A stretch of 64,000 nt of DNA. Source: Spirobacillus cienkowskii (GTDB taxonomy: Bacteria; Bdellovibrionota_B; Oligoflexia; Silvanigrellales; Silvanigrellaceae). The translations under genes and the position numbers were made by a program. The stretch lies in NCBI RefSeq assembly GCF_037081835.1, contig NZ_CP146516.1, positions 1,635,501-1,699,500 of the forward strand, written 5' to 3'. The notes beneath the pieces were generated by a model. The model searched no databases and was not told where the DNA came from. It saw only the letters and a program-made list of their open reading frames with translations. Shown here one piece after another: positions 24,378-46,750 of the stretch. Positions within the stretch are counted from its first letter, which is position 1; the number at the start of each line of letters is the position of its first letter.

Positions 24378-24436
24378 TAGATAGGTAAGCAATATGCGAT
24401 GTTTTTTATTTTAAGATATTTGGTAATTTTTTATTT
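24378..24436 (+). repeat. direct repeat DR-L at the left edge of the orphan-module island
   Basis: A ~57-bp sequence beginning tagataggtaagcaatatg. It matches 46693-46750 with about two mismatches and the same orientation. The two copies bracket ~22 kb that contains all orphan toxin/immunity modules. Confidence 0.7.
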
Positions 24437-24440
24437 ATGC

Positions 24441-24566
24441 CAGTTAATAGTTGAGAAAATTACTATGAAGCTTAAAGAAATGGATCCAATTTGTTAAATG
24501 ATTTTTTCAAAAATAGCTTAAAAAAGGAGCTAAAATGGGGTGGCAGCGCTAACTCATCACTGTATA
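24441..24566 (-). repeat. dispersed repeat copy 3, inverted and degenerate
   Basis: Read on the minus strand it follows copies 1 and 2: it opens like agccaactcatcaactgta and ends like ttctcaactattaactg. The middle is eroded. It lies immediately inside DR-L. Confidence 0.5.
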
Positions 24567-24945
24567 CCTTACTACCTGCGATTTATTTTCTCAACTACAT
24601 TTATCCTCTTTTTTAAAAATTAGTCTATACACAAATCCTTCGTTAATAAACCAAGAAGTCGTCACTATTTTCATCTTTGTAGTTTTAATGAAATAAAAAA
24701 ATTCTTTCAAGTGATGAAAAAAGTTTATTCAAAATTTGACCGCTCTATTAGGCAGTTTATTGAAATCCTATTTAACAGGTTAATTGAAACTAACGGAATT
24801 CAAATCGCATCAAAAGTGCTTTCTATTAAAGGACTTATCATCTATGTTTTCAGACATTTTTCTACCTGTCTGTTTAAGTACTAATTATTTTCCTAGTTGA
24901 TTTTTTTAAACTATTAAATAGCATAACAAAATTAAAAAACGAAAC
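24567..24945. other. non-coding stretch, nothing recognised
   Basis: A/T-rich, with only short open frames (for example a 58-codon plus-strand frame ending at about 24883) that resemble nothing I know. It is probably decayed DNA at the island edge. Confidence 0.4.
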
Positions 24946-25188
24946 TTGCGCGAATATTTTTTTAAAAACAATCGAAATTACAAGAAAACAAGCAATCCAA
25001 GTTCTTATTGGTTGATTGCCAAAGTCGAAAGCAATTTTTGTCCACGCGTGATTCACATCAATAGCATCAAAAAAGTACTCTACGGCGAAAAAGCTGTGTA
25101 CTATTTAAAAACAACACAAATTAAAAATGATGAAAATTTAGACATCGGTATTTTTCAAATCAATTGGAAATACCATGGAAGTCAATAA
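24946..25188 (+). pseudogene. VirB1-like lytic transglycosylase remnant
   Basis: The frame contains LIAKVESNFCPRVIHIN and NLDIGIFQINWKYHG, matching the SLT-type catalytic core (the Glu of V-E-S is the expected active-site residue, and G-I-x-Q-I-N the second motif) as in type IV secretion VirB1 proteins. There is no signal peptide and the protein stops at GSQ right after the second motif, so both ends are lost. Confidence 0.55.
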
Positions 25189-25431
25189 AAATATAGACCA
25201 AAGATTTTTTTGATCTAAGTTATAGTTTAGTGTATGTGACGAATTGGGTTATACCTATGGTATATCAAAAATGTAAAATTAATTGGATTAGTTGTTACCA
25301 TTCATTTAACAAAGACAGAGGAGATGTCTACAAAATGAAAATCAACAAAGCTAATTTAGAGCTAAGATTAATTTTAAATTCTTTGATAAAGCAGAGCACA
25401 AAATAAATATTATTTTTTAAGGATGATACTA

Positions 25432-26238
25432 ATGTTTAATACTAAGTCAATTTTTGCTGTTGTTGCTTTTTCAGCGTTAACAATTTCATGTAGCAACAGT
25501 GGTGGTGGTGGAGATAAAAATAATTCAGAAAAATTTCATAACAGAAATAATTTTGATTCAACTTCTCATTCTCCAATGACTGCATGTAACAAAGATGCAC
25601 CATTTGCTAAGTGTTTTGAAGGACAAAACCCATCACAATTAGAACCCAATAAATTAATTAAATCTTGTCCAGCAGGGACGATTCAAATTAATGATATATG
25701 CGATACTTTAAAAGTAGAATTTAATTATTCAAAAAATTCTGCAGAGAAAGAATCGAAAATAGTTAAATTAAAAGGTAAAAAAACAGATGAGTTGATTGTT
25801 CAAAAAGAAGAATCAAATGGTGAGAAAAAATATGATTATGGAAAATACTTTTCTCATGACAATAATGATGATTTAATATATAATTATAATAATAAATTCT
25901 GGGAGTATGAAAGTTTCAAAAGTCACAATAAGCCTGTAGAACTGTATTCTAAATTAAATATACGTCGAGTATCCTTTTCTGCTAATTTAAGTACCAGTGA
26001 TAATAAGTTAAATATTGATTTTGATTTTGACGGCTACCAATTTAATTCTCAAAACGTTGACCTAGAAAAAGTGTGCAAAGAACTATCTGAAAAATATCAA
26101 ACACAACATCAATATATAGATATACTGATGTATGGTTCTGATTCTGTTGATTGTATTATTCAATCACTAGACCTTTCAATACAGGGATATAAAAATCAAT
26201 CAGGAACAGGATCAATTATAAAAAAAGTAGATTTTTAA
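25432..26238 (+). CDS. putative lipoprotein of unknown function
   Basis: A 268-aa protein if started at the ATG at 25432, which lies 8 bases after AAGGA; an in-frame ATG at 25423 is too close to that site. The lipobox is LTISC, followed by SNSGGGGDKN, a flexible tether typical of exported lipoproteins. A short Cys-containing segment (ACNKDAPFAKCFEGQ, then SCPAGTIQINDICD) resembles repeats of Bdellovibrio-type lipoproteins, and the rest is polar with no known domain. The gene has its own non-coding leader and no operon partner. Confidence 0.6.
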   Translation: MFNTKSIFAVVAFSALTISCSNSGGGGDKNNSEKFHNRNNFDSTSHSPMTACNKDAPFAKCFEGQNPSQLEPNKLIKSCPAGTIQINDICDTLKVEFNYSKNSAEKESKIVKLKGKKTDELIVQKEESNGEKKYDYGKYFSHDNNDDLIYNYNNKFWEYESFKSHNKPVELYSKLNIRRVSFSANLSTSDNKLNIDFDFDGYQFNSQNVDLEKVCKELSEKYQTQHQYIDILMYGSDSVDCIIQSLDLSIQGYKNQSGTGSIIKKVDF

Positions 26239-26245
26239 AACGTCT

Positions 26246-27199
26246 TCACAAATTTTCCTCAGTAGCATCTGATTCTTCATCATCTGCACCTTGATTTTGA
26301 CTCACAATCATAAATGGCGAAATATTTTCAGAATATTGACTTACTGATTTATTATTTAGATAATTTGAATTACTTAATTCAGAGTTAGTTATATCTAAAA
26401 TATTATTATAATTTTTCACAATCAAACCATTTATAATCACAAAAGATTCGCCAAAACCCAAGTCTTTAATATTTTTAATCATGGTTTTAACTTCAAACAT
26501 CGTGTTTTGTGAATGATAACAATCATTGAATTTTTTAGCACTAATTTCTAGTTTTTTAGTGTAGTTATATTTTTTATTAGGAAGCTCGTCATTATAAAAA
26601 TCCTTTAAAAATCTAAGCCCAAATTGTTTTCCTTGTTGATATGCACAAAAATATGCTCTTTCTTTGCTATAATTATCCAATCCATCAAATAAATATGACT
26701 CAAATTTTATGTCGTTCGCATGATTTTCATGTAAAGTCATAACTTTATCAAAAAATGCTTTACCCTTATTCCTGTCTGTTAAACTATGAATATAAACAAT
26801 TTTAATCTTTGGATTATCAGAACCATATAAAAATGTATCTTTAATATTAAAAGATACTCGCGGAGGTTTTGGTTCAGAAAAATTTATGACAAGATTTTTA
26901 CTGCTCTTAAAGTTAAATTTTGTTACAAAATTACTCATATCATCATAATATTTTTTTTCAATTTCATAAAGTTCTTGTATTTCATTTATTTTTAAGTCCT
27001 TAATTTTGATTTCTTGGCCATTTCCTGAAGCAATAATTGAATCTTGATTTTCAAGAGGAAAAACATTGACAATATTTTTATTGTCACAAGTATTTCCAGA
27101 AATATCAATTTTAACTTTAATAGGCTCCATTTTTGAAGCAAAACAGGTCTCTGAAAAAGTTAAAAATACAAAAGAAGTTAAAAAAATTCTATTTTTCAT
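26246..27199 (-). CDS. exported thioredoxin-fold (DsbA-like) protein lacking CXXC
   Basis: I start at the ATG at 27199 because GAGGTG precedes it and it gives a clean signal peptide (MKNRIFLTSFVFLTF, cleaved near CFA-SK); the open frame extends 51 codons further up through unrelated DNA. The body has DsbA-like order: a strand PKIKIVYIHSL where the CXXC would sit, a helical insert with AYFCAYQQGKQFG, and FGESFVIINGLIV in place of the cis-Pro region. The catalytic cysteines are missing, so oxidoreductase activity is unlikely. The assignment rests on pattern only. Confidence 0.45.
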   Translation of the reverse strand: MKNRIFLTSFVFLTFSETCFASKMEPIKVKIDISGNTCDNKNIVNVFPLENQDSIIASGNGQEIKIKDLKINEIQELYEIEKKYYDDMSNFVTKFNFKSSKNLVINFSEPKPPRVSFNIKDTFLYGSDNPKIKIVYIHSLTDRNKGKAFFDKVMTLHENHANDIKFESYLFDGLDNYSKERAYFCAYQQGKQFGLRFLKDFYNDELPNKKYNYTKKLEISAKKFNDCYHSQNTMFEVKTMIKNIKDLGFGESFVIINGLIVKNYNNILDITNSELSNSNYLNNKSVSQYSENISPFMIVSQNQGADDEESDATEENL

Positions 27200-28539: not shown

Positions 28540-29322
28540 CGGTATCACATAAATGCCCAACCTGCATTAAAACTAGCAGCGCGTGATAAAAGAGAGCTTG
28601 CAGCGTTTAATAAGAAAGCAGATGAAGTTCTAATTAAACAGGGTTATAGCCAAGAGAGCATAGATAAACTTCGAGTGTTATACGAAGTAAAAGTAGGAGC
28701 CAAAAACCTAGATGATGTTTTAAAAGAAAAAGGCAAAGATTTTTTTAAGCATGATGAGTTTAAAAATCTTGCAGCAAAAGAAGGTTTGGGGATAGGGAAG
28801 AATGCGAGTGGTCAGGATGTTTTAAAAATTAATGTTCGTTCAGGGAATACCGGAAATTGGAATAAAGAATTAAATTATCCTAAGCCCAATAGAATTTATA
28901 AGGTTAATGAGCATGTCGATTATCATACCGATGAATTTGGACGTGTATTTTTTGTAAAAGGAGATTTTGATAAAGAAACATTAGAAATATTAGGAAGAAA
29001 TGATTATCGAACAGGACAAGTGGGTAAATTAGGTAAAAGCGACAATCATGGAGGCCATATAATAGCAAGAATTTTAGGAGGCGCAGGAGAAAAGTTAAAT
29101 TTAGTTCCAATGAATGGAGAATTTAATAGACGTGAATGGTTCGAGATGGAAAAGTTATGGGCAGATGCAATTAAGGATGGTAAAAAAGTTGAGTTAAAAA
29201 TAGAGCCTGTGTATTTGGAAAAAGGTGTTAGGCCGGATAAGTTTAAGATTGAATATAAAATTGGTGATGGTAAGAGTATTGAACGAACATTTGATAATGT
29301 ACCTGGAGGTAAGAAAAAATGA
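28540..29322 (+). CDS. orphan CdiA-CT, endonuclease NS_2-type toxin A (no start codon)
   Basis: From RYHINAQPALKLAA onward the 261 codons match toxins B and C. An N-terminal helical part (DKRELAAFNKKADEVLIKQG) leads to the nuclease: DNHGGHIIARILGG, then LNLVPMNGEFNRREWFEME. The D-x-G-H segment followed by N-L-V-P-M-N and N-x-x-x-W-x-x-x-E is the signature of DNA/RNA non-specific endonuclease toxins (PF13930 type), where His is the general base and the Asn binds metal. The frame runs upstream to a TTG at 28387 through unrelated sequence, so I treat this as a promoterless cassette. Its stop overlaps the immunity start (ATGA). Confidence 0.72.
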   Translation, partial: RYHINAQPALKLAARDKRELAAFNKKADEVLIKQGYSQESIDKLRVLYEVKVGAKNLDDVLKEKGKDFFKHDEFKNLAAKEGLGIGKNASGQDVLKINVRSGNTGNWNKELNYPKPNRIYKVNEHVDYHTDEFGRVFFVKGDFDKETLEILGRNDYRTGQVGKLGKSDNHGGHIIARILGGAGEKLNLVPMNGEFNRREWFEMEKLWADAIKDGKKVELKIEPVYLEKGVRPDKFKIEYKIGDGKSIERTFDNVPGGKKK

Positions 29323-29639
29323 CAAGAGATCAAGAAATTTATATCGATATTATTAAATTATTGTATCAAAATAGTTTAGAAGATACAAAAAAAATATCAA
29401 TGCAGGCTGAGTTAATAACTCCAGAAGGTGATGTTTGTGAGTTTGAACTTTATTGTTATAATCAAGCCGATCAAAAAGAAAGGGTTAGTATTCAAGGAGT
29501 AATTGCTGCAAAAATACATAATCTTCTTAAGGATCTCCGAGAATTTTTCTTAAAAAACAATCAGCCTTACTGGAAGGGGTGTAATTTTGAAGTAAACTTA
29601 GAGGCCGGTAGTTATGAAGTTAATTTTGTTTACGAATAA
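29319..29639 (+). CDS. YezG/DUF600-like immunity protein, subtype a, for toxin A
   Basis: A 106-aa acidic protein. It has the small alpha/beta shape of YezG-type antidotes: N-terminal helix (MTRDQEIYIDIIKLL), central strands, the helix LKDLREFFLKNNQPYWKG, and the closing strands FEVNLEAGSYEVNFVYE. YezG-family proteins neutralise the nuclease domains of LXG and related toxins. Its ATG overlaps the toxin stop. A strong hairpin terminator follows at 29676. Confidence 0.7.
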   Translation: MTRDQEIYIDIIKLLYQNSLEDTKKISMQAELITPEGDVCEFELYCYNQADQKERVSIQGVIAAKIHNLLKDLREFFLKNNQPYWKGCNFEVNLEAGSYEVNFVYE

Positions 29640-29675
29640 AAAATAATTTAAATTTAATTAATTTTTAAAAATAAA

Positions 29676-29712
29676 AAAGAGTGTATTTAAAAATAAATAA
29701 GCTCTTTTTTTA
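29676..29712 (+). terminator. rho-independent terminator after module A
   Basis: Stem gagtgtattta / taaataagctc (29679-29689 with 29694-29704) followed by seven or more T. The same hairpin recurs at 30917, 33299 and 40448. Confidence 0.8.
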
Positions 29713-29761
29713 TTTTAATTTTTAATTTAAAGCGGAAGTTAAAATTTTTTAATCGCAATCG
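29713..29761 (+). repeat. inter-module spacer repeat, copy 1
   Basis: A conserved A/T-rich spacer with core aaagcggaagttaaaattt ending in aatcgca, lying between the terminator and the start-less toxin B. The same block occurs before toxin C (30955) and before the pseudogene at 46062. Confidence 0.65.
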
Positions 29762-30538
29762 CATCACATAAACACCCAACCTGCAGTAAAATTAGCCCCC
29801 CGTGATAAAAGAGAGCTTGCAGCGTTTAATAAGAAAGCAGATGAAGTTCTAATTAAGCAAGGTTATAGCAAAGAAAATATAGATAAACTTCGTGTGTTAT
29901 ACGAAGTCAAAGTAGGGGCTAAAAATCTTGATGATGTGCTAAAAGAAAAAGGGAATGATTTTTTTAAGCATGATGAGTTTAAAAATCTTGCAGCAAAAGA
30001 AGGATTGGGGATAGGGAAGAATGCGAGTGGTCAGGATGTTTTAAAAATTAATGTTCGTTCAGGGAATACCGGAAATTGGAATAAAGAATTAAATTATCCT
30101 AAGCCCAATAGAATTTATAAGGTTAATGAGCATGTCGATTATCATACTGATGAATTTGGACGTGTATTTTTTGTAAAAGGAGATTTTGATAAAGAAACAT
30201 TAGAAATATTAGGAAGAAATGATTATCGAACAAAACAAGCTGGGAATTTAGGTAAAAGCGATGATCATGGCGGGCATATAATAGCAAGAATGTTAGGAGG
30301 CGCAGGAGAAAAGTTAAATTTAGTTCCAATGAATGGAGAATTTAATCAAAAAGAATGGTTCAAGATGGAAAAGTTATGGGCAGATGCTATTAAGGATGGT
30401 AAAAAAGTTGAGTTAAAAATAGAGCCTGTGTATTTAGGGAATGGTGTTAGGCCAGATGGTTTTAATATTGATTATAAAATAGATGGTGAAGGGTTTAAGG
30501 AAGTATTTGATAACGTGCCGGGAGGTAAGTTTAAATGA
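29762..30538 (+). CDS. orphan CdiA-CT, endonuclease NS_2-type toxin B (no start codon)
   Basis: The 259-codon frame HHINTQPAVKLAPRDKRE onward is about 90% identical to toxin A over most of its length, with DDHGGHIIARMLGG and LNLVPMNGEFNQKEWFKME keeping the full catalytic signature. It differs from A mainly in the last ~25 residues (FNIDYKIDGEGFKEVFDN), which may tune immunity specificity. A stop codon shortly upstream shows it cannot be expressed from the spacer as a full CdiA fusion. The stop overlaps the downstream ATG. Confidence 0.72.
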   Translation, partial: HHINTQPAVKLAPRDKRELAAFNKKADEVLIKQGYSKENIDKLRVLYEVKVGAKNLDDVLKEKGNDFFKHDEFKNLAAKEGLGIGKNASGQDVLKINVRSGNTGNWNKELNYPKPNRIYKVNEHVDYHTDEFGRVFFVKGDFDKETLEILGRNDYRTKQAGNLGKSDDHGGHIIARMLGGAGEKLNLVPMNGEFNQKEWFKMEKLWADAIKDGKKVELKIEPVYLGNGVRPDGFNIDYKIDGEGFKEVFDNVPGGKFK

Positions 30539-30954: not shown

Positions 30955-31005
30955 TTTCATTTTTAATTTTTAATTTAAAGCGGAAGTTAAAATTTTTAAT
31001 CGCAA
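30955..31005 (+). repeat. inter-module spacer repeat, copy 2
   Basis: Same block as 29713-29761, including aaagcggaagttaaaattt, directly before toxin C. Confidence 0.65.
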
Positions 31006-31785
31006 TTGCTTCACATAAACACCCAGCCAGAAGCAGTAAAATTAGCCCCCCGCGATAAAAGAGAGCTTGCAGCGTTTAATAAGAAAGCAGATGAAGTTCT
31101 AATTAAGCAAGGTTATAGCAAAGAAAATATAGATAAACTTCGTGTGTTGTACGAAGTGAAAGTGGGCGCAAAAAACCTTGATGATGTTTTAAAAGAAAAA
31201 GGCAACGATTTTTTTAAGCATGGTGAGTTTAAAAATCTTGCAGCAAAAGAAGGTTTGGGGATAGCAAGAAATGCTAAAGGACAGCAGGTTTTAGAGATTA
31301 CTATTAATTCGGGCACGACATGGAATTGGAGTAAAGAGCTGAGTTATCCTAAGCCTAATAGAGTTTATATGGTTAATGGTCAAGTTCATTATCAAACGGA
31401 TGAGTTGGGACGTGTGTTTGATAAAAAATCAGAATTAACGTATGAAAATTGGCAAAAACGAGGAAGAAATGGGCACCAGCAAAGGAATGCGGGTAAATTA
31501 GGCGAAAAGGATGATCACGGTAGCCATTTATTGGCACATATGCTAGGCGGCCCAGGAGAAAAAATCAATTTAGTTCCAATGAATAAGGAACTCAATGGCC
31601 GCGAATGGCTTAAAATGGAAATGGAGTTAAACAACGCATTAAAAGATAATAAAAAGATAAATTTTCACGTTAAAATAGAGTATGAAGGAAACAGTAAAAG
31701 GCCGAAGCGGTTTGAGGTTGAATATAAAATTGATGGTGGTAAGGCTATTGAGCATAGTTGGAATAATACGCCAGGAGGAAAATAA
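31006..31785 (+). CDS. orphan CdiA-CT, endonuclease NS_2-type toxin C
   Basis: A 259-codon frame beginning at TTG (LHINTQPEAVKLAPRDK). The N-terminal ~80 residues match toxins A and B, but the nuclease part has diverged: DDHGSHLLAHMLGGPGEK and INLVPMNKELNGREWLKMEM. The D-H-G-x-H and N-L-V-P-M-N signature remains. It marks the left end of tandem duplication unit 1; only its last 71 codons survive in unit 2 (38662). Four YezG-like immunity genes of different subtypes follow. Confidence 0.72.
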   Translation: MLHINTQPEAVKLAPRDKRELAAFNKKADEVLIKQGYSKENIDKLRVLYEVKVGAKNLDDVLKEKGNDFFKHGEFKNLAAKEGLGIARNAKGQQVLEITINSGTTWNWSKELSYPKPNRVYMVNGQVHYQTDELGRVFDKKSELTYENWQKRGRNGHQQRNAGKLGEKDDHGSHLLAHMLGGPGEKINLVPMNKELNGREWLKMEMELNNALKDNKKINFHVKIEYEGNSKRPKRFEVEYKIDGGKAIEHSWNNTPGGK

Positions 31786-32166: not shown

Positions 32167-32490
32167 ATGGCAAAAGAGCAAGAAATAATTTCTAAAATAA
32201 TAGATTTAATGACGGAGATTAAAATATATAAAGATAATCCGCAAAAGGTTATTTTAAAATATCAAGTAAATGATGAAAAAAATACTGCGGATCTCAATTT
32301 TAGTTTTATTGCAAGCGATCAAGAATATAACTCTTATGTTGAGTTGAGCGAGGTAGAAAAATTTCATTATTTATTAATGGAGTTAAGAGAGCTTTTTGCA
32401 AAAAGAAAACCTTTTCATTATTGGAAATCTTGTGTTTTAGAAATTGATTTTGAATTAAAAAATTATATTTTTAATTGTATTTATGATTAA
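32167..32490 (+). CDS. YezG-like immunity protein, subtype c (orphan)
   Basis: A 107-aa protein. It starts AKEQEIISKIIDLMTEI and has the helix LLMELRELFAKRKPFHYWKS and end strand ELKNYIFNCIYD, aligning with subtypes a and b but clearly separate. No toxin precedes it. It is probably kept as protection against a toxin no longer encoded here. The unit 2 counterpart is at 39237. Confidence 0.65.
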   Translation: MAKEQEIISKIIDLMTEIKIYKDNPQKVILKYQVNDEKNTADLNFSFIASDQEYNSYVELSEVEKFHYLLMELRELFAKRKPFHYWKSCVLEIDFELKNYIFNCIYD

Positions 32491-32544
32491 AAATACACAT
32501 TTGATAATCTAAAAAAAATTAGGAAACAAGTTTGAGGAAAAATT

Positions 32545-32883
32545 ATGCTAACTAAGCAAGAAAAAGAAAGCAATGCTGCAAAATTAGCTTCAGAAAAAAT
32601 GTTGAGTATTATGCCTGAAGGGATGATGAATATGATTTTAAGATTTAAAGTCATCAATCCAAAGTCAGAATGTAAAGTTGTTTTAAATTATACCAAACCC
32701 AATGGGTCTATTTCTCGTTTTACAGAAAATGACTGTGCTTTAATAGGAGATAAATTTTATGAAGCCGAAAATTATCTTGGTAATTTGCTTTTAAAATTAT
32801 TAAAAGACACAAAAGGAGAATGGGAAACGTGTTTTATTTGGGTAAATAAAGATGGGGTTCATGACCTGGATCTTTTTAGATAA
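32545..32883 (+). CDS. YezG-like immunity protein, subtype d (orphan)
   Basis: A 112-aa protein with ASEKMLSIMPEGMMNMILRF, NYTKPNGSISRFTENDCA and the ending CFIWVNKDGVHDLDLFR. It resembles subtype b but the tail differs. A GAGGAAAAAT ribosome site precedes the ATG, so each gene of this array can be translated separately. No toxin partner is adjacent; the counterpart is at 39673. Confidence 0.65.
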   Translation: MLTKQEKESNAAKLASEKMLSIMPEGMMNMILRFKVINPKSECKVVLNYTKPNGSISRFTENDCALIGDKFYEAENYLGNLLLKLLKDTKGEWETCFIWVNKDGVHDLDLFR

Positions 32884-32932
32884 AATATTTTAATTTTAGT
32901 TTTAATGTTTAAAAATAATTGAAAGGTTAACA

Positions 32933-33253
32933 ATGAAAAGGGATCAGGAAATTTATAATTCTATTGGAAAAATATTAAATAAAAATAAATTAAAAGATTC
33001 AGATAAAATATTATTTTATATAAAATATCTCAATTCACAAAGAAACGTTTGTGAAACAGGCGTGTTTGCAAAAAATGAAGACGATAAAGAATCGCAAATC
33101 ACTTTATCCGAAGACGATTCAACAGAAATTCATACTTGTGCAGATGAACTGTATGAATATTTTAAAAATAATAACTTGCCCGATTGGAATGGTTTGTCTT
33201 TTATTTTAGATTTAAAAACAGATCAATATGATATAGATTTTATTGATGAGTGA
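32933..33253 (+). CDS. YezG-like immunity protein, subtype e (orphan)
   Basis: A 106-aa protein beginning KRDQEIYNSIGKILNKNK, with LYEYFKNNNLPDWNGLSF and the ending LKTDQYDIDFIDE. It shares the overall plan of subtype a. It is last in the b-c-d-e array and is followed by the conserved terminator at 33299. The unit 2 counterpart is at 40082. Confidence 0.65.
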   Translation: MKRDQEIYNSIGKILNKNKLKDSDKILFYIKYLNSQRNVCETGVFAKNEDDKESQITLSEDDSTEIHTCADELYEYFKNNNLPDWNGLSFILDLKTDQYDIDFIDE

Positions 33254-33335: not shown

Positions 33336-33345
33336 GTAAAAAAAA

Positions 33346-33891
33346 TTAGCAAAAAAAATCGATATTAATGATCCTGACTATAAACCTACATTAGTTGGGA
33401 AAGGCTACATAGATTCGTTAAAATCTAGAAAAGAAGTAGAAGACATGTATGGGAAAGAAAATGTAATATCCCGTTCGGTGCCTGATTTAAGTAAACCTAA
33501 TGTTAATATGGCTGGAAGAGCGATAAATGTTGAATTAGATGACGGTAGAGTTGTAAAAGTGGTGTTTGATCAAAAGGGTCTTATCGATCTGACACCGTAT
33601 ATGAAAGTAGAAGTAAGAATGCCTGCAGGGGAAATGTTTGATAATAAATATGGTAAGCATTTTAAAATGGCAACTGAAGAGTTAAAAAGACAAATAGAAG
33701 CAGATCCGATTTTAAAAAGTAAATTTACTAAACAAGAATTAATAGATATTGAAAATGGGAATCGAAATATTGGAGCGTATACTTGGCATCACCATCAAGA
33801 TTTAGGCAGAATGCAGTTAGTAGAAAGCGATGTGCATGAAAAAGTTGCACATGTGGGTGCAAAAAGCTTAAATCCTGAGTTAAAAGATTAA
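33346..33891 (+). CDS. orphan WHH nuclease CdiA-CT, copy 2 (no start codon at the junction)
   Basis: The frame opens LAKKIDINDPDYKPTLVGKG and runs 181 codons in parallel with the tip of the live CdiA (7203-7781). NVNMAGRAINVELDDGRVVK and AYTWHHHQDLGRMQLVE keep the nuclease core. The middle (MKVEVRMPAGEMFDNKYGKH) differs from the live tip, and the Lys/Glu tail is missing. The first possible start is the internal ATG at 33445, which would remove the opening part. A terminator lies immediately upstream, so it looks silent. Confidence 0.75.
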   Translation, partial: LAKKIDINDPDYKPTLVGKGYIDSLKSRKEVEDMYGKENVISRSVPDLSKPNVNMAGRAINVELDDGRVVKVVFDQKGLIDLTPYMKVEVRMPAGEMFDNKYGKHFKMATEELKRQIEADPILKSKFTKQELIDIENGNRNIGAYTWHHHQDLGRMQLVESDVHEKVAHVGAKSLNPELKD

Positions 33892-34483: not shown

Positions 34484-34523
34484 TAAATTAAAAATAAAAA
34501 GCGTTAAAAAAGGTAAATTTAGT

Positions 34524-35778: not shown

Positions 35779-36093
35779 TTACGCTGCTTCGATTGTTATT
35801 TTAAATTTAAGTTTGTCTTTCTCAAGAATTTCTTCGAGAGCAAGCTTAACAAATATCAATTGATCATAGCCTAATTTTTTTGCAAACAGGGCGGCTCTGC
35901 CAGGACTAATGCCTTTTCTTCCATTTTCGATATCGGATAAATTTTGTTTTGAAATACCAAGTTTTTTTGCAAATTCTAGTTGAGTCAACTCATCACATAA
36001 ACGTAACGAGCGCAATAGTTGCGATAAAGCAAGAGGTTTTCCGCCTCGCAATTTTTTTAAAACTTCAGTCGCATCCATTGATTTAGTACTCAT
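35779..36093 (-). CDS. higA: HigA-like XRE antitoxin, copy 1
   Basis: A 104-aa protein with a helix-turn-helix at residues ~32-75 (LTQLEFAKKLGISKQNLSDI, ENGRKGISPGRAALFAKKLG), the XRE/HigA fold that binds the toxin and represses the operon. It overlaps the toxin frame by 11 bases, toxin first, as in higBA loci. The toxin is split, so it may act only as an antidote or repressor. The copy at 44154 differs at one residue. Confidence 0.8.
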   Translation of the reverse strand: MSTKSMDATEVLKKLRGGKPLALSQLLRSLRLCDELTQLEFAKKLGISKQNLSDIENGRKGISPGRAALFAKKLGYDQLIFVKLALEEILEKDKLKFKITIEAA

Positions 36094-36422: not shown

Positions 36423-38024
36423 CCCATCCAAGCAACCCTGCATCGCGATAGCAGCACCGCCCATCAAAAACTAGATGAGATATTTGACGAAGAGCAAATT
36501 CGGTTAAAAATAGGGATCGTTAACGATTTTGGCAAAGAGTTTGGCACATTTATATCAAATAGAGGGCAAGAAGCAGAGCAAAAAGAGAAAGAATTAGAAC
36601 ATGCTCTTAAAAATAGCGACACACTTCCACCCGAATACATAGAACAATTAAAACAAGAATACGAATCTGCTGCGAAATGGGCACCAGGGGGCGAATACCG
36701 TCAGGTTGCCACAGCACTTGCTGCAGCGTTTACAGGCAAGCTCAGTGCCACGGGAACGGAGCTTGTGCAAAGTTTTGCGGCCAATTATTTGCAAAGCATC
36801 GGTGCCGAAAAAATCAAAGAACTTGCCCCATTACTGGGGGGCGAAGGCAGCCCTGGGCACATTGCTCTGCACTCTGTTTTAGGCTGTGCCGCAGGAGCTA
36901 TGGCCGATAGCTGCGGTTCTAGAGCGTTTGGAGCAGCATCAGGGGTGCTGATCAATACTGCCCTTTCAAGCCTTGAAGACACACAAAACCTCAGCGCTGC
37001 TGAGAGAGAAAATCGCATCAACATTGTGACCTCGTTGGTAGCGGGCATGTCTGCTGCTGCAGGGCTTGGCGATCCCAATGCTGCGATGACCAGTGCGAGG
37101 TTGGAAACAGAGAATAATAATTTGAAATTTGTGACAGAGAAAGGTTCGTATTTGCTAGATAAATTGGCAGATAAACGTACATGGCAACTTTTGCTGTTAG
37201 GCGGTGCAACGCTGACGTCGGGTTCTACTGCGTCAGTGGCAGTGAACGGTTTGATAATTTTAGGCAGAGCCTACACAGCTTATGAGATTGGCCAAGATAT
37301 TTATGATGTTATAAATGGCGAAAAAACTTTGCAGCAGTTGGCGCTAGAAAAGAGTGAAGATTATGTTGTAGGTCTTATCACAACAAAAGCATTTGGAGAG
37401 ATCGTCAAATCGGTAAAATCTGGTGCTTCGATAGTGATGCAAATGGGTGATGATGTCGTCGTCCAACAAGTAAAAAGCAGTGTTATCAATGTAACAGAAG
37501 CTAATAAAGACAAAATACAAAATTTAGCGAACTCTGGTGAAGAGTTTTTGCAAAAGGTAAAAGCCAAGGGTAAAGATTCAAAACAAATTGCAGAAAATCT
37601 TCCTGATGCCAAAGGCAAAGTCCCAGATGCGGATGGCAAGCTTCCTGGCACAAAAGAAAAACTTCCCGAGGCGGATGGTAAGAGTAGAAATCGTAATGAA
37701 AATGTGTTAATATCTAGAGATGATAATCAAATTAATCAACAAATAAGCAAGCCTTACAAACGTCCTTCTAATGCAACAACTCAAAAACAAAGAAAAACAG
37801 TACAAAATCAGCCTTGTGTAGATTGTGGTGTAAAATCAGATAAAATGTTTGCAGATCATAAAGTGCCTTTGGTAAAAGAATATTATGAGTCTGGAGGGAA
37901 AATTAATTTACAAAAGATGCGAGAAATTGATGCTGTACAGCCTCAATGTTCGTCTTGTTCTTCTAAGCAAGGAGCTGAAATGAGTAGATATTCTAAACAA
38001 AAGAAAAATGAATTAGGATTATAA
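36423..38024 (+). CDS. orphan CdiA C-terminal region with HNH-type toxin (no start codon)
   Basis: A 534-codon frame, open from PIQATLHRDSS. The first ~230 codons copy the live CdiA pretoxin region (AAKWAPGGEYRQVATALAAA, NYLQSIGAEKIKELAPLLGG) up to ETENN, where similarity stops. A new entry region follows, then a D/G/K-rich linker (DAKGKVPDADGKLPGTK) and an HNH-like zinc domain: CVDCG, FADHKVPLVKEYYESG, VQPQCSSCSSKQG. Two C-x-x-C pairs and D-H fit a zinc-bound HNH nuclease. The junction with higB DNA is abrupt (near aagcgtcaccc), and the first usable start is an internal GTG at 36765. Confidence 0.75.
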   Translation, partial: PIQATLHRDSSTAHQKLDEIFDEEQIRLKIGIVNDFGKEFGTFISNRGQEAEQKEKELEHALKNSDTLPPEYIEQLKQEYESAAKWAPGGEYRQVATALAAAFTGKLSATGTELVQSFAANYLQSIGAEKIKELAPLLGGEGSPGHIALHSVLGCAAGAMADSCGSRAFGAASGVLINTALSSLEDTQNLSAAERENRINIVTSLVAGMSAAAGLGDPNAAMTSARLETENNNLKFVTEKGSYLLDKLADKRTWQLLLLGGATLTSGSTASVAVNGLIILGRAYTAYEIGQDIYDVINGEKTLQQLALEKSEDYVVGLITTKAFGEIVKSVKSGASIVMQMGDDVVVQQVKSSVINVTEANKDKIQNLANSGEEFLQKVKAKGKDSKQIAENLPDAKGKVPDADGKLPGTKEKLPEADGKSRNRNENVLISRDDNQINQQISKPYKRPSNATTQKQRKTVQNQPCVDCGVKSDKMFADHKVPLVKEYYESGGKINLQKMREIDAVQPQCSSCSSKQGAEMSRYSKQKKNELGL

Positions 38025-38404: not shown

Positions 38405-38661
38405 TTTATTATTTTAGGGAGTGTACTCAAATAACGAAGAATACTTGAATTTTGGCATGTTTCCCCTAAGGGTTGGATTACCAAGTCTAACAAAAGAGGG
38501 AAACATGTTGAGGTTGATGATAACAGATCCAATGTGGTCGAGGCTAGCACCATTGCTTAAGGAATTTAAAATTCATTTTTCGAATAGAATTAGGATCTTT
38601 ATGGGAGCTGTTTTTTGGAAGTTACGAACAGGAGCGCCATGGAGAGATCTTCCAACAGAAT
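38405..38661 (+). mobile_element. IS5-family fragment
   Basis: One end and the first part of an IS5-type element. The frame from ATG 38505 reads LRLMITDPMWSRLAPLLKEF, then FMGAVFWKLRTGAPWRDLPT, the DUF4096-like N-terminus of IS5 transposases. It breaks off at EFG, where the sequence passes into the NS_2 toxin at ttggttccaatgaa. An inverted repeat (catgtttccc / gggaaacatg, 38457-38505) lies in the leader. Confidence 0.75.
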
Positions 38662-38877
38662 TTGGTTCCAATGAATAAAGTTTTAAATACAGGAAAATGG
38701 CTTGAAATGGAACAGGCGATTAATAACGCCATAAAAGCTAAGAAAAAAGTAACGTATGATTATGATGTAAAATATGAAGGAAATAGTAACAGACCAAGTA
38801 GTTTTAAGGTTAAGTATAGTGTTGATGGTGCTAAGCCTATTGAACATAATTGGGAAAATTTATTAGGAGGAAAATAA
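38662..38877 (+). pseudogene. NS_2-type toxin, C-terminal third only
   Basis: The 71 codons read LVPMNKVLNTGKWLEMEQAI and end IEHNWENLLGGK. They match the end of toxin C (LVPMNKELNGREWLKMEMEL, HSWNNTPGGK). The D-H-G-x-H half is missing, so it is inactive. It shares TAATG with the following immunity gene, preserving the original pairing. Confidence 0.75.
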
Positions 38878-40402: not shown

Positions 40403-40447
40403 TTGAATAAAGTAAAATAAATTTTTTTAATAAAATACTTAAATAAA

Positions 40448-40485
40448 AAAAGAGTGTATTTAAAAATAAATGCGCTCTTTTTTTT
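40448..40485 (+). terminator. rho-independent terminator after immunity array 2
   Basis: Stem agagtgtattta / taaatgcgctct followed by eight T, immediately upstream of the start-less WHH cassette. Confidence 0.8.
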
Positions 40486-40488
40486 AAT

Positions 40489-41067
40489 GAATTAGCAAAA
40501 AAAATCAATATTAAGGATCCAGACTACAAACCTACATTAGGTGGGAAAGGACCTATAGATTCGTTAAAATCTAAAAAAGAATTCGAAGCCATGTATGGAA
40601 AAGAGAATGTAATATCGCATACTGTGCCTGATTTGGATAAGCCTAATGTTAATATGGCTGGAAGAGCGATAAATGTTGAATTAAATGATGGTAGAGTTGT
40701 AAAGGTTGTATATGAGCAAAAGGGGCTTCCTATTTTCACGTCGCATATGAAAACGGAAGTAATTTTTCCGCAAAAGACAATGTTGGAAACAAATTATAGA
40801 GAGCATTTTAAGATGGCAACAAAAGAGCTAAAAAGACAAATAGCTGAAGATCCTGCTTTAAGAAAAAAATTTACTAAACAAGAGCTACTCGATATAGAAA
40901 ATGAAAAAATTAATATAGGAGAAAGTACGTGGCATCATCATCAAGATTTAGGTAGAATGCAGCTAGTGCCATCAAAAATTCACGAGGTAAGGCATGTTGG
41001 CGCTAAAAGTTTAAATCCTGAATTAAAAGAAAGAAAAACAAAAGTTAAAGTGGAGGCTACTGAGTGA
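40489..41067 (+). CDS. orphan WHH nuclease CdiA-CT, copy 3 (no start codon at the junction)
   Basis: The 192-codon frame ELAKKINIKDPDYKPTLGGK is closer to the live CdiA tip than copy 2 is: SHTVPDLDKPNVNMAGRAIN, PHMKTEVIF-type middle, STWHHHQDLGRMQLVPSKI and a Lys/Glu-rich tail. The first internal ATG is at 40591. Its TGA overlaps the SUKH GTG (GTGA), the same joint as in cdiA-cdiI. Confidence 0.75.
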   Translation, partial: ELAKKINIKDPDYKPTLGGKGPIDSLKSKKEFEAMYGKENVISHTVPDLDKPNVNMAGRAINVELNDGRVVKVVYEQKGLPIFTSHMKTEVIFPQKTMLETNYREHFKMATKELKRQIAEDPALRKKFTKQELLDIENEKINIGESTWHHHQDLGRMQLVPSKIHEVRHVGAKSLNPELKERKTKVKVEATE

Positions 41068-41700: not shown

Positions 41701-42861
41701 ATGCAAAAAATAACAGAATTTGAAAACAAATACAGTTTAAAACTCCCCGTGCATTATAAAAATTTATTAAAGGAACATCATTATTTAAAAGTGCGGGTGC
41801 ATTATACCACCAATGTGCAAGAAGTGATAAATAACGATGATAAAGAAGATTACGTTGGTTATTTAGTTACTTTTACAGAGTATGTAGAAGATATGTATGC
41901 CATGGAATATGAAATAAAACATAATTCAGATGTATTTTTTAATAATAAACTGATTCCTTTTGCAAAAGATCGTAAGGGTAATTACAATTGCCTCAGTTAC
42001 TTAAACGGATTGCCAGACTCAGAACCATCTGTGGTATATGTAAAGTTAGGTAACATTGAAGGTAAAAAAATAATCGAAAAAATAGATTATGTTGCCAATA
42101 GTTTTGAATGTATTTTACCCACTTTAACAGAAAAGTTACCTGAAATTGATGTTTATGGTACGTCATCAGCTTTAAAAGTAAATGTTTCTAACGAAAAAAA
42201 ACTATTATTTAAAGAAAATCCGTATTCGCAGTTTGGGGAGTATTTGGATAAAAATTATTATACCAATAAATATTTTGAAATTAAAAATAAAAAAGGAGAT
42301 AGTTTTTTAAATTATTTAGAAAAAATCAACCCAAAACGCTACCAAAACCTAATGCAAACTATCAATAATAGTCTTCGCGACGAAGAGATGCATTTTCTAA
42401 AAGAATTTAAGCAAGAAGCCTCTACTCCTGCATTTACCCAATACGCCAAATGCGTGGTAAAAGGGCTAAACCCCGAAGAGTATATTTTTAGAGGCTTAAC
42501 GTTAAAAAATATGCCTTCAACTCGCACTGAGCATGAAATTTTAACGGATATCGCTCAAGTTTTATACAATACTGTTCCCGATGATTTTATAAAAATTGTA
42601 TTTAATGGTGCTCTTGCACCTACTGGCCGTAATGCAAAATATTTGTTTGATGCGTTTGACGCCGAAGACAAAATGAAAATTTATGACATTGATGAATTGA
42701 GTTTTGTAAACTTAACCATGTTGTTTTCAGAATTGCGTCAGTATTTAACTGATCAATACGAGCGTCCTTTAAGGGAACTGAGAATTTATTATTATATTGA
42801 TAAAGCTAAAATAGAAAAACAATATTTTTATTATACGCCGTCCACTAAGTTTTTAACATAA
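41701..42861 (+). CDS. SUKH-fusion putative immunity protein, copy 3, tail replaced by IS630
   Basis: A 386-aa frame that matches the other two copies up to KIEKQYFYY, where IS630 enters (42834). The normal ending YQMYDDH is replaced by TPSTKFLT encoded by the IS end. The displaced original tail and stop lie at 44031-44058. Only ~7 residues are lost, so the protein could still work. Confidence 0.65.
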   Translation: MQKITEFENKYSLKLPVHYKNLLKEHHYLKVRVHYTTNVQEVINNDDKEDYVGYLVTFTEYVEDMYAMEYEIKHNSDVFFNNKLIPFAKDRKGNYNCLSYLNGLPDSEPSVVYVKLGNIEGKKIIEKIDYVANSFECILPTLTEKLPEIDVYGTSSALKVNVSNEKKLLFKENPYSQFGEYLDKNYYTNKYFEIKNKKGDSFLNYLEKINPKRYQNLMQTINNSLRDEEMHFLKEFKQEASTPAFTQYAKCVVKGLNPEEYIFRGLTLKNMPSTRTEHEILTDIAQVLYNTVPDDFIKIVFNGALAPTGRNAKYLFDAFDAEDKMKIYDIDELSFVNLTMLFSELRQYLTDQYERPLRELRIYYYIDKAKIEKQYFYYTPSTKFLT

Positions 42862-43434
42862 GCTTGCCTTAGGTTTTGAATTCATAATTGACTTGACAAT
42901 TTTTTGTGTTAATTGATTCCAACCACTAGAGCATTTTTGAACGAGATCTTCATAATCTTTATAAATTTTAAATGATAAGTGATTCCTTTTAAAATAACTC
43001 CATAACCTTTCAATTGGATTTAACTCTGGAGAAAATGAAGGTAAAAAAATAAATGATATATTTTGGGGTAAAATTAATTTTTTGCTTTTATGTGCACTAG
43101 CTCCATCTAGTATCATAATAATATGCTCATTCTTAGGTACGGTCTTGGAGTACTCATTGATAAAAATTTGCATGTTTTCAACATTTAAATTTGGTAATAT
43201 CATTCCAAAATATTTGCCCGTATCTTTGTTAGCAGTAGCATAAATCCATGAGTTTAAATAACCCATTTGAGTTTTAAATTCTGGTCTGATTGGGAAAGGA
43301 CTCCAAATACCAGATTTTATTGTCATTTGTCCAAATCGTGATTCATCTTGAAAATCTATGTTTATTTTTTTTCCTGGATTTTTTACTTTAATTTCATTAA
43401 TTTTATTTGGTAAATCTTTAATCCATTCGGCCAT
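42853..43434 (-). CDS. IS630-type transposase ORFB (DDE_3)
   Basis: A 193-aa ATG-started frame containing the catalytic stretches IDFQDESRFGQ, HIIMILDGASAHKSKKLILP and IFLPSFSPELNPIERLWSYF (the N-P-I-E block with the last acidic residue). The frame is open upstream to the A9 run at 43528-43536, so ORFA-ORFB fusion by frameshifting should give the full transposase (~340 aa). Confidence 0.88.
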   Translation of the reverse strand: MAEWIKDLPNKINEIKVKNPGKKINIDFQDESRFGQMTIKSGIWSPFPIRPEFKTQMGYLNSWIYATANKDTGKYFGMILPNLNVENMQIFINEYSKTVPKNEHIIMILDGASAHKSKKLILPQNISFIFLPSFSPELNPIERLWSYFKRNHLSFKIYKDYEDLVQKCSSGWNQLTQKIVKSIMNSKPKASLC

Positions 43435-43484
43435 TTTTTCTGGGTCATTTTTTATATGCTTTGTTCTTGGAACAACTCTTCTTA

Positions 43485-43946
43485 TTAATGTTCTTTGAAG
43501 GAACTTGTATAACCCACTTTTACTAAATTTTTTTTTAATTTCGTTTTGGATTCTATAATACTATTTATTATTTGGGCATGAACAACTTTTTCCTCATTAA
43601 ATTCAGAATTTAATTGAATGATTTCAGTTTTTAAAATTTCAACTTCTTCTTTATTTACAAAGGATGGACGACCAGAACGTGGTTTATCAAGTAAAAAATA
43701 AATACCATTATTCTTATAGTTTGAAACCCAATAATTTGCCCGTCCTCTTGAAAGGCATAATAAAGTTTCAATCTTTTTTTCAGAAAATCCTACGGAATAT
43801 AAAAAAATTATAAATAATCGACGTAAAAGATTAAAACTTAATTTATTTTGAGGTATTCTCTTTAAATCATCCATAAGTTGTTGTACATTATTCATTGTGC
43901 TGCAGTGTCCTTTTATAAAAGAAAGTACGAATGTTAACTGCAGCAT
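43485..43946 (-). CDS. IS630-type transposase ORFA
   Basis: 153 aa, identical to the copy at 242-703. The helix-turn-helix lies in the first half. After the A9 slippery run the alternative frame reads KFSKSGLYKFLQRTLIRRVV and leads directly into ORFB. Confidence 0.87.
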   Translation of the reverse strand: MLQLTFVLSFIKGHCSTMNNVQQLMDDLKRIPQNKLSFNLLRRLFIIFLYSVGFSEKKIETLLCLSRGRANYWVSNYKNNGIYFLLDKPRSGRPSFVNKEEVEILKTEIIQLNSEFNEEKVVHAQIINSIIESKTKLKKNLVKVGYTSSFKEH

Positions 43947-44030
43947 ATCCTGTTTTCAATATTCATCAATTTCCGTATAAATATTTATTTTTGGTTATCT
44001 ATGTTGCCAACAAACTTAGTGGACGGCGTA

Positions 44031-44058
44031 TTACTATCAAATGTATGATGATCATTAA
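44031..44058 (+). pseudogene. displaced 3' end of the SUKH-fusion gene
   Basis: Encodes the original tail YQMYDDH and stop, cut off from its gene by the IS630 insertion. Confidence 0.85.
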
Positions 44059-44729: not shown

Positions 44730-44789
44730 AAGACCTCCATCTAAATAAAAGTACTCCTTGCAGTAGTATTTGTCAACAAAAAATCCTCA

Positions 44790-45117
44790 AGCGTCACCCG
44801 GAGCGTGATAGACGAAGGCGTACTTGAAATCCGCAATGACAAAAAGCAATTGGCGCTCACAGGCAAAACAATACGAATCTGCCGCCAAATGGGCGCCTGG
44901 GGGCGAATACCGTCAGGTTGCCACAGCACTTGCCGCAGCGTTTACAGGCAACCTCAGCGCCATAGGAAGTGAGTTGCCACAAAGTTTTGCGGCCAATTAT
45001 TTGCAAAGCATCGGTGCCAAAAAGATTAAATAATTTGAGAATTTAGATTAGTTTTTCAACTTAATCTTCTAAGCAAGGCGCGAAAGTAGATATTCTAAAC
45101 AAAAGAAAAATGAATTA
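44790..45117 (+). pseudogene. collapsed CdiA tip (HNH toxin cassette) of unit 2
   Basis: Begins with CdiA pretoxin DNA (VTRSVIDEGVLEIRNDKKQL), jumps by internal deletion to YESAAKWAPGGEYRQVATAL, and stops after LQSIGAKKIK. Then come out-of-frame remains of the toxin's last codons (SSKQGA, YSKQKKNELGL), ending before the immunity gene. The toxin is destroyed while the antidote downstream is intact. Confidence 0.8.
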
Positions 45118-45127
45118 GGATTATAAA

Positions 45128-45481
45128 ATGAATAAAGTTGAAGAGCAAAAAGCGATAAGCTTAAAGTCTGGCACATTGTACATAGAGTGCCCGCTAAACT
45201 TAAAAGTTGGAATAAGTAAAAATATTTTAAATAAAGAATTAACAATGCCAATAAACGCTATGCGTTACCTCCCTTCAAAGGATACAACAGGTTGGTATAT
45301 TTGGGCAGGTGAAGAGTTTTCTGAAAGTAATGATTTTTTTGTTGCATTGCATGCAGAACATTTAGAAAAATATTGTCCTTTAATAATAAAATATTTGGGA
45401 TTACCACCTGGTTGGAGAGTTTTAATTGATGATTCTGCATATGAAGATGTTTGGTACGATTCTTCTTTATTAGTTGAATAA
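45128..45481 (+). CDS. Imm33-like immunity protein, copy 2 (orphan)
   Basis: 117 aa, one residue different from 38026 (S for Y in LKSGTLYIE). It keeps its start and spacing although the HNH toxin in front has collapsed, so selection may favour immunity alone, or the deletion is recent. Confidence 0.65.
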   Translation: MNKVEEQKAISLKSGTLYIECPLNLKVGISKNILNKELTMPINAMRYLPSKDTTGWYIWAGEEFSESNDFFVALHAEHLEKYCPLIIKYLGLPPGWRVLIDDSAYEDVWYDSSLLVE

Positions 45482-45569
45482 AATTTTATTTATACACGAT
45501 TATTTATTTATTATTTTAATAAATTTGGAGATATTTTTATTGTTATGCTAGAAATTTGTTGCTACTTAT

Positions 45570-45635
45570 AAAATTGATAATTCAGCTTTTGAATCTAAAT
45601 CATTTGATAATGTTCCTGGAGGTAAGAAAAAATGA
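45570..45635 (+). pseudogene. NS_2-type toxin, last ~20 codons
   Basis: The frame reads YKIDNSAFESKSFDNVPGGK and stops at TGA overlapping the next ATG, like the end of toxin A. Nothing of the nuclease domain remains. Confidence 0.65.
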
Positions 45636-45952: not shown

Positions 45953-46005
45953 TAAATATTTTAGATTCAATTAATTTTTAAAAATAAATACGCTCTTTTT
46001 TTTTG

Positions 46006-46061
46006 TTTCATTTTTATTTTTTAAATTAAAGCGGAAGTTAAAATTTAATAATCGCAGGTAG
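46006..46061 (+). repeat. inter-module spacer repeat, copy 3
   Basis: Contains the core aaagcggaagttaaaattt seen before toxins B and C, here before a pseudogene. Confidence 0.6.
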
Positions 46062-46366
46062 TTCAGATAAATTATCAACCAGAATCATTAAAAATATCAG
46101 AAAATTTGTTATCATTTATACCAGATGTAATGATTAATGCAATTGTAAATTTTAGAGTGCAAGATAATTATACACCAATTGTTGTCAATTTTACTTATTC
46201 AAAATGGGTTTTAAAAACTCATACATATAAAAAGGAGCAATTAAATAAACAAAAAATCAATGAATCTAAAAATTTTATAGAAAAAAACTTTTATTAATAA
46301 GAAAAAATACAGACGATTATTACGATTCATTCATGTTTTGGTAAATAGAAAAGGTGAATTTTAGAT
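46062..46366 (+). pseudogene. toxin junction fused to a broken YezG-like immunity gene
   Basis: Opens with the toxin-type junction SQVVQINYQPESLK, then continues as an immunity protein (ENLLSFIPDVMINAIVNF, NFTYSKWVLKTHTY) and is broken by stops near 46295. The family ending appears in two frames (DDYYDSFMFW, then VNRKGEF). The toxin body has been deleted out. Confidence 0.6.
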
Positions 46367-46399
46367 TAGTTTTTATTGATAAAAAATTAAAAATAAGGA

Positions 46400-46500
46400 A
46401 CCAAAAATTCGCGGTCGTGATCAAAAGAAACTTGTTAATTTGGCATTGCATATGAAGGTTGAAGCAATATTATCTGTATCCAATTTAATGTAGCGGAGTT
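46400..46500 (+). pseudogene. WHH toxin remnant (copy 4)
   Basis: A short frame reads RDQKKLVNLALHMKVEAIL, matching the YDQKGLPGFTPHMKTEVIF segment of the live WHH tip. No WHH core remains. Confidence 0.5.
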
Positions 46501-46509
46501 ATTACAAAT

Positions 46510-46695
46510 GTAAAAAAAAGAGCGAAATAAGATATTGGATTTGAAACTCGAGAAGGAAAAGTTGATATTTTTTTAGTACGTGAATTTAGAAATAAAAGTG
46601 CGTTTAAATTTCCACAATATTATATAGATATTACTACATATTATAATGAAGCTATAATTAAAAATCACATCGATAATTTTTATTTTTATTCTTAG
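46510..46695 (+). pseudogene. SUKH immunity remnant (copy 4)
   Basis: From ~46531 the frame reads DIGFETREGKVDIFLVREFR, then FKFPQYYIDITTYYNEA and FYFYS before a stop. This follows cdiI (FETREEKVDISVVREFENK) residue by residue over its first third. The rest is cut off exactly at the direct repeat DR-R. Confidence 0.7.
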
Positions 46696-46750
46696 ATAGG
46701 TAAGCTATATGCGATGTTTTTTATTTTAAGATAATTGGTAATTTTTTTAT
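46693..46750 (+). repeat. direct repeat DR-R at the right edge of the island
   Basis: Matches DR-L (24378-24436) with about two mismatches over 57 bp. It begins at the stop of the truncated SUKH remnant and runs into the stop codon of the 903-aa gene. Confidence 0.7.

What the first reader, a model, noticed from the sequence alone, without database searches (positions are those of the whole stretch)
24378..46750. A silent library of CdiA tips and antidotes, opposed to the live cdiBA operon
Seen: start-less fragments continuous with CdiA coding frames (WHH at 33346 and 40489; a CdiA pretoxin plus HNH at 36423; NS_2 toxins at 28540, 29762 and 31006), each followed by immunity genes. Known: orphan cdiA-CT/cdiI modules exist in enterobacteria, normally downstream of cdiA on the same strand. 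Here most of the array lies beyond cdiB and in the opposite orientation, so exchange with the live tip would need inverted-repeat recombination, which could flip the region, or gene conversion.
Basis: partly seen in the sequence, partly recalled or inferred. Interest (0 to 1): 0.85.

Follow-up and report, generated by a model that had tools for sequence, protein, structure and literature searches.

The report
Opposed array of spare CdiA tips
Next to its contact-killing gene cdiA, a water-flea pathogen carries a 22-kb block of start-less spare toxin tips with intact antidote genes, facing the other way; a sister strain lacks the block but wears one of those spare tips on its live CdiA, so the tips are truly exchanged.

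Summary
The window lies in a 2,806,830-bp genome that matches the long-read Spirobacillus cienkowskii genome (Silvanigrellales). Start-less CdiA tips (three NS_2, two WHH, one pretoxin+HNH) and at least 17 intact immunity genes lie on the + strand beyond cdiB, opposed to cdiBA. A 99.07%-ANI draft genome of the same species settles much. There, CdiA has the same backbone (94.6%) but ends in the very HNH tip that is an orphan here (97.9%, with its Imm33-like immunity gene). The whole 22-kb array is missing, leaving one copy of the ~60-bp repeat that brackets it here. That strain's cdiBA has the same orientation, so tips do exchange between strains, but inversion is not how these two differ. Recombination traces link the opposed copies: a mosaic pretoxin arm, homogenised SUKH2 flanks, and one truncated HNH allele on both strands. 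Where array modules are broken, the toxin is usually lost and the immunity gene kept. Best reading: an inverted, secondarily acquired orphan cdiA-CT/cdiI array, kept mainly as an immunity bank and also a tip reservoir. The 693-bp inverted pretoxin arms would permit an immunity-conserving, reversible flip; that is not excluded and not shown. Silence is inferred, not measured.

The parts
7203..22427 (-). live cdiA (5074 aa), TPS domain, haemagglutinin repeats, WHH/colicin-DNase tip
22475..24214 (-). cdiB transporter (POTRA + ShlB)
6643..7206 (-). live SUKH immunity gene
5445..6602 (-). SUKH2, second SUKH-type gene; downstream homology arm shared with the array
8073..8765 (-). pretoxin arm in live cdiA, ends at VENN-like ETENN; inverted partner of 36426-37118
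   Evidence: 95.8% over 693 bp, no gaps
24371..24436 (+). left copy of the ~60-bp direct repeat that brackets the array; one copy in the sister strain
46685..46752 (+). right copy of the bracketing repeat
28545..29322 (+). start-less NS_2 tip A
29319..29639 (+). YezG-like immunity gene (weak Pfam match, below cut-off)
29753..30538 (+). start-less NS_2 tip B, followed by immunity gene 30535-30870
31000..31785 (+). start-less NS_2 tip C, followed by immunity gene 31785-32120
32167..33253 (+). three immunity-type genes (32167-32490, 32545-32883, 32933-33253) without a toxin frame
33340..33891 (+). start-less WHH tip A
33908..35681 (+). SUKH (33908-34483) and SUKH2 (34524-35681) copies
35779..36093 (-). 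HTH (antitoxin-like) gene between modules; 98%-identical segment at 44029-44799
36426..38024 (+). start-less pretoxin + HNH tip; the live tip of the sister strain
   Evidence: 97.9% over 2248 bp to L026
38026..38379 (+). Imm33-like immunity gene of the HNH tip
   Evidence: PF24719 E 3.7e-39
38418..38672 (+). 5' part of an IS5-type element, joined to an NS_2 remnant
38659..38877 (+). NS_2 tip remnant, followed by four intact immunity-type genes to 40402
40447..41067 (+). start-less WHH tip B, followed by SUKH 41064-41660 and SUKH2 41701-42833
42834..44031 (-). IS630-type element inserted at the 3' end of SUKH2 copy B
44787..45518 (+). truncated pretoxin/HNH remnant with intact Imm33-like gene (45128-45481); same deletion as the - strand copy in L028
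45601..45952 (+). last codons of an NS_2 tip and its intact immunity gene 45632-45952
46052..46692 (+). broken immunity and SUKH fragments at the right edge
29670..29715 (+). inter-module hairpin with T run (others at 30908-30958, 33293-33338, 40440-40488)
   Evidence: z-scores -4.8 to -9.3; 5 genome-wide matches, all in this locus

Best explanation
This is an orphan cdiA-CT/cdiI array of the known CDI kind, but present as a 22-kb block that sits on the cdiB side and faces cdiBA. SHOWN: the block is present in this strain and absent at the same site in a sister strain; one of its tips (HNH) is the live tip of that sister strain; the toxin frames lack starts while the immunity genes have their own; toxin frames have dN/dS of 0.15-0.34; opposed copies have exchanged or copied sequence. 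INFERRED: the block was gained, or rearranged into place, in inverted orientation in this lineage. Displaced tips are kept because their immunity genes protect against relatives that still deploy them. They can return to cdiA by homologous exchange (gene conversion, crossover or incoming DNA) using the pretoxin region upstream and SUKH2 downstream as arms. For the NS_2 tips no arm to the live gene exists, so they depend on incoming DNA or are kept for immunity only. Toxin frames are presumed not translated, and hairpins between modules presumably limit read-through.
For: Sister-strain contig L026: cdiA backbone 94.6% to the live gene, then HNH tip + Imm33-like + IS5 start = window 36425-38672 at 97.9%. 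Empty site: draft contig C40 joins the cdiB side to the right flank through one repeat copy; no WHH or NS_2 in the draft at DNA or protein level. Truncated HNH + Imm33-like + IS5 with the sister strain's flank lies downstream of cdiA on the - strand. Immunity ORFs nearly all have Shine-Dalgarno sites, toxin frames none. Broken toxins beside intact immunity genes at 38659, 44787, 45601 and in L028. Exchange traces: pretoxin mosaic, runs test P=0.0003; dS 0.45-0.67 in WHH against 0.11-0.12 in SUKH2; shared truncated allele on both strands, 6 differences in 571 bp. Precedent for expressed orphan immunity and immunity collection: PMC3150448, PMC3848433, PMC6336857.
Against: No expression, toxicity or immunity data. 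Only two strains, so gain here cannot be told from loss there by recombination between the ~60-bp repeats. Low dN/dS may reflect selection while the tips were live rather than retention as orphans. Immunity-only genes may never have had a toxin beside them.
Confidence: 0.68

Rival explanations
1. Invertible tip switch: homologous recombination between the inverted pretoxin arms (8073-8765 / 36426-37118) flips the promoter-cdiB-cdiA backbone, so that it reads into WHH on one side or HNH on the other, without losing either antidote.
For: Ungapped 693-bp inverted arms at 95.8% that end at the VENN-like boundary and read in the CdiA frame on both sides; intact HNH tip and antidote, proven usable as a live tip in the sister strain; cdiB and its upstream region lie inside the segment that would flip; mosaic arms show recombination.
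Against: Both strains have cdiBA in the same orientation and the sister strain lacks the array; no recombinase gene recognised in the window; no read-level evidence; the mosaic can come from incoming DNA.
Confidence: 0.12
2. Neutral debris: a graveyard of displaced modules accumulated by insertion sequences and duplications, with no function.
For: Many IS remnants, truncated modules and a degraded second unit.
Against: At least 17 immunity ORFs intact; broken modules mostly keep the immunity gene; HNH frame 7 synonymous against 4 non-synonymous changes between strains (P=0.003), NS_2 pair dN/dS 0.21.
Confidence: 0.13
3. Free-standing toxins expressed from internal starts inside the orphan frames.
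For: Internal ATG/GTG/TTG codons exist in the frames.
Against: No Shine-Dalgarno at these codons; such starts would cut the entry region or the nuclease domain; no secretion signal seen.
Confidence: 0.03
4. Assembly artefact: the opposed block is a misjoin in the complete genome, or the cdiA-HNH fusion is a misjoin in the short-read draft.
For: Long repeats are present; the draft comes from short metagenomic contigs (PMC12321486 says large-scale comparison with it is difficult).
Against: The genome is a single circle from nanopore duplex reads at 1,745x (PMC12321486). Draft contigs C103, C40 and C124 agree with one another, and no array gene occurs elsewhere in the draft.
Confidence: 0.04

Closest known systems
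Orphan cdiA-CT/cdiI modules of enterobacteria (PMC3150448, PMC4927057)
   Same: Start-less tips with immunity genes, varying stretch of cdiA homology ahead of the VENN boundary, IS elements, an orphan tip that is live in another strain.
   Different: There they follow cdiBAI in the same transcriptional orientation (stated in PMC4927057); here the main array is on the cdiB side, opposed, and present or absent as a block.
Meningococcal tpsC cassettes and IORFs (PMC3848433)
   Same: Tip cassettes interspersed with immunity genes; rare exchange; immunity collection proposed as the main benefit; truncated cassettes keep their immunity genes.
   Different: Located downstream of tpsA; no opposed array is mentioned in that paper's main text (term search).
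Acinetobacter type-II cdi orphan regions (PMC6336857)
   Same: Stepwise displacement of old tips by new ones and excess of immunity genes; the - strand HNH remnant + Imm33-like + IS5 here is exactly this.
   Different: No opposed block is described there in the passages read.
Salmonella orphan rhs switching (PMC3967940, as described in PMC4927057)
   Same: Orphan toxin loaded onto the main gene by homologous recombination.
   Different: Works through direct repeats in Rhs; here the arms are inverted, so a simple crossover would flip rather than delete.

Membership tests
CDI system (cdiBAI) | CdiB-type two-partner transporter next to a TPS-domain haemagglutinin-repeat CdiA | tested here: met
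   ShlB 1.2e-75, POTRA, TPS 1.1e-42, Fil_haemagg
CDI system (cdiBAI) | C-terminal toxin that varies between strains after a VENN-like boundary, with an immunity gene directly downstream | tested here: met
   WHH/SUKH in the window against HNH/Imm33-like in L026, diverging after ETENN. The PT-VENN HMM itself gave no match, nor did it in the controls
CDI system (cdiBAI) | Contact-dependent growth inhibition neutralised by the cognate immunity protein | not testable with these tools
   needs bench work
Orphan cdiA-CT/cdiI module | CdiA-tip fragment without translation start | tested here: met
Orphan cdiA-CT/cdiI module | Followed by an immunity gene | tested here: met
Orphan cdiA-CT/cdiI module | Fragment includes the VENN-like boundary (usual, not universal) | tested here: inconclusive
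   present in the HNH module; the WHH modules start at the nuclease domain and the NS_2 modules share no DNA with the live pretoxin region
Orphan cdiA-CT/cdiI module | Downstream of cdiBAI in the same orientation (customary position, not a definition) | tested here: not met
   array opposed and on the cdiB side; only the L028 remnant is canonical
Invertible (phase-variable) gene switch | Inverted repeats whose crossover exchanges expressed ends in frame | tested here: met
   693-bp arms, ungapped, both read in the CdiA frame
Invertible (phase-variable) gene switch | Both orientations observed | tested here: not met
   two strains, both in the same cdiBA orientation; raw reads not available here

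The most novel reading that the evidence does not exclude
The opposed arrangement is a conservative tip switch: crossover between the inverted pretoxin arms flips the promoter-cdiB-cdiA backbone between two tips without deleting either antidote. That would solve the recognised problem that same-strand orphan recombination costs the cell its immunity to its siblings.
Probability: 0.12. Interest if true: 0.82.

Novelty: new variant of a known kind. Interest (0 to 1): 0.55.

Why it matters
CDI systems carry orphan tips, but direct-repeat recombination would delete the resident immunity gene, and the use of orphans is debated (PMC3150448, PMC3848433, PMC4927057). A case outside the usual hosts (phylum Bdellovibrionota), with an opposed array, an empty site and an orphan tip that is live in a 99%-identical relative, gives a tractable natural experiment. 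The deposited deep nanopore reads could show directly whether tips flip. It also shows that the cdi locus is a hot spot of change in this Daphnia pathogen: cdiA backbone 94.6% against 99.5% for the adjacent flank and an OrthoANI of 99.07% (PMC12321486).

Tried and rejected
PT-VENN HMM search rang nowhere, controls included, so uninformative. Promoter scan of the array: 92 hits against 94 expected by chance, no information. HNH tip and the unknown - strand protein against PDB sequences: no hits; AlphaFold without an alignment gave pLDDT 35-41 and was not used for a fold search. Relatives: same-genus genomes G003 and G004 hold cdiA with same-strand tips only in the stretches read. HNH tip in 56 relatives: no full-length relative outside this species. 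Considered: the sister strain's HNH tip as an inversion product of this arrangement; rejected because its cdiBA keeps the same orientation, lacks the array and reads into the same downstream flank. Considered: plain tandem duplication of WHH-SUKH-SUKH2 without exchange; rejected because synonymous divergence differs about fourfold along the block. Literature: the searches found no opposed orphan array or invertible CDI tip (papers read); the library lacks most subscription papers.
Full report
What and where. The window is G000:C1:1635501-1699500 of a single-contig genome of 2,806,830 bp. It matches in size the complete Spirobacillus cienkowskii genome (PMC12321486: 2.81 Mbp, nanopore duplex, 1,745x), and its nearest public match is the S. 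cienkowskii draft genome. A term search of that paper's main text finds no mention of CDI or toxins. The live operon is on the - strand: cdiB 22475-24214, cdiA 7203-22427 (5074 aa; TPS domain, haemagglutinin repeats, Colicin-DNase/WHH tip), SUKH 6643-7206 and SUKH2 5445-6602.

The array. On the + strand, from 28.5 to 46.7 kb, lie start-less tip frames each followed by immunity genes: NS_2 x3, WHH x2, pretoxin+HNH x1, plus remnants, with at least 17 intact immunity-type ORFs. The unit 32.2-38.4 kb recurs at 39.2-45.5 kb. Immunity ORFs nearly all have Shine-Dalgarno sites; toxin frames do not. Four module boundaries carry a terminator-like hairpin (z -4.8 to -9.3). With up to three mismatches it occurs five times in the genome, four in the array and one on the - strand in the canonical orphan position, with none for the reversed-pattern control. 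The degraded array end near 45970 holds only half of it.

Homology to the live gene. The HNH module keeps 693 bp of pretoxin at 95.8% in inverted orientation, ending at the VENN-like ETENN where tips diverge. WHH-SUKH-SUKH2 modules match the live end at 85-89% but begin at the nuclease domain. NS_2 modules share no DNA with the live cdiA; they are recognised as CdiA tips through G004, where relatives are fused to CdiA frames on one strand.

The sister strain. L026 (QOVW01000107.1, draft of the same species, OrthoANI 99.07%, PMC12321486) aligns to the live cdiA at 94.6% for 8 kb and then, at the VENN-like point, continues as window 36425-38672 at 97.9%: HNH tip, Imm33-like gene, start of IS5. 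Contig C124 begins in the end of an IS5 copy and runs into the flank that in the window strain follows a truncated HNH + Imm33-like + IS5 on the - strand (L028); the link between the two draft contigs through IS5 is inferred. So the downstream flank is shared, and the HNH module was displaced here or reloaded there. Contig C40 joins the cdiB side directly to the right flank (99.5%) through one copy of the ~60-bp repeat that brackets the 22-kb block here. WHH and NS_2 are absent from the draft at protein level and the rest of the array (other than the HNH/Imm33-like module and IS copies) at DNA level, while the same protein queries ring in G000. Orientation of cdiBA is the same in both strains.

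Traces of exchange. In the pretoxin arm, positions where the sister strain agrees with the array copy lie at the 5' side, those where it agrees with the live copy at the 3' side (runs test P=0.0003). dS between live and array copies is 0.45-0.67 in WHH and 0.46-0.77 in SUKH but 0.11-0.12 in SUKH2 (Fisher P<1e-6), so the shared downstream flank has been homogenised or used as an exchange arm. A truncated HNH + Imm33-like allele with the same deletion junction sits on both strands (6 differences in 571 bp). These traces show exchange or copying between opposed copies, not its mechanism; incoming DNA could also produce them.

Selection. dN/dS is 0.21-0.30 among NS_2 tips, 0.24-0.34 among WHH, 0.15 for HNH between strains (7 synonymous against 4 non-synonymous changes, binomial P=0.003), 0.12-0.18 for SUKH2 and 0.09-0.64 for the other immunity genes. 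Frames are not decaying freely, although this may reflect selection while they were live. Within the array, three toxin breakages (NS_2 at 38659, HNH at 44787, NS_2 at 45601) and the L028 twin all leave an intact neighbouring immunity gene; broken immunity fragments occur only at the right edge and in the outer flank.

Mechanism. Shown: between-strain exchange of the CdiA tip, presence or absence of the opposed array, recombination traces. Inferred: retention for immunity, occasional reloading through pretoxin/SUKH2 homology. Open: flipping. The arrangement would make a flip conservative, because the promoter region and backbone move and both tips with antidotes stay; same-strand recombination instead deletes immunity (PMC3150448, PMC3848433, PMC4927057). 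Nothing here shows a flip.

Known or new. The parts are ordinary orphan cdiA-CT/cdiI modules; the opposed, cdiB-side, strain-variable block is a variant that I did not find described, with the caveat that the paper library is partial.

Noticed in passing
1717-3325: Gene pair on the - strand matching PADLOC candidate defence models PDC-M02A (2.5e-31) and PDC-M02B (9.8e-18), lying between SUKH2 and the displaced HNH remnant.
   Followed up: no
1-788 and 42834-44031: Identical IS630-type copies in the same orientation bracket cdiBA and most of the array; at least a dozen further copies at about 100% identity in the genome, so deletion of the whole 42 kb by recombination is possible.
   Followed up: partly
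27425-28489: Minus-strand gene pair of unknown kind (possibly another tip and its antidote); no Pfam, NCBIfam, PADLOC or PDB match, poor structure model. A 63-bp piece recurs at 27345-27407.
   Followed up: partly
9500-22400: The cdiA backbone differs between strains very unevenly (0 to 23% per 250 bp over the aligned 8 kb), suggesting recombination within the repeat region as well as at the tip.
   Followed up: no
L026:6323-6402: The sister strain's cdiA is split by a frameshift between two overlapping frames; a real lesion or a draft error.
   Followed up: no
24437-24925: Interspersed mobile-element remnant just inside the left bracketing repeat, with many relatives in the draft genome; a related 130-140-bp repeat lies at 1592-1728 and 4980-5116.
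   Followed up: no
32933-33253: Immunity-type ORF with a weak PADLOC match to Cas4 models (5.4e-6); likely chance given its context.
   Followed up: no
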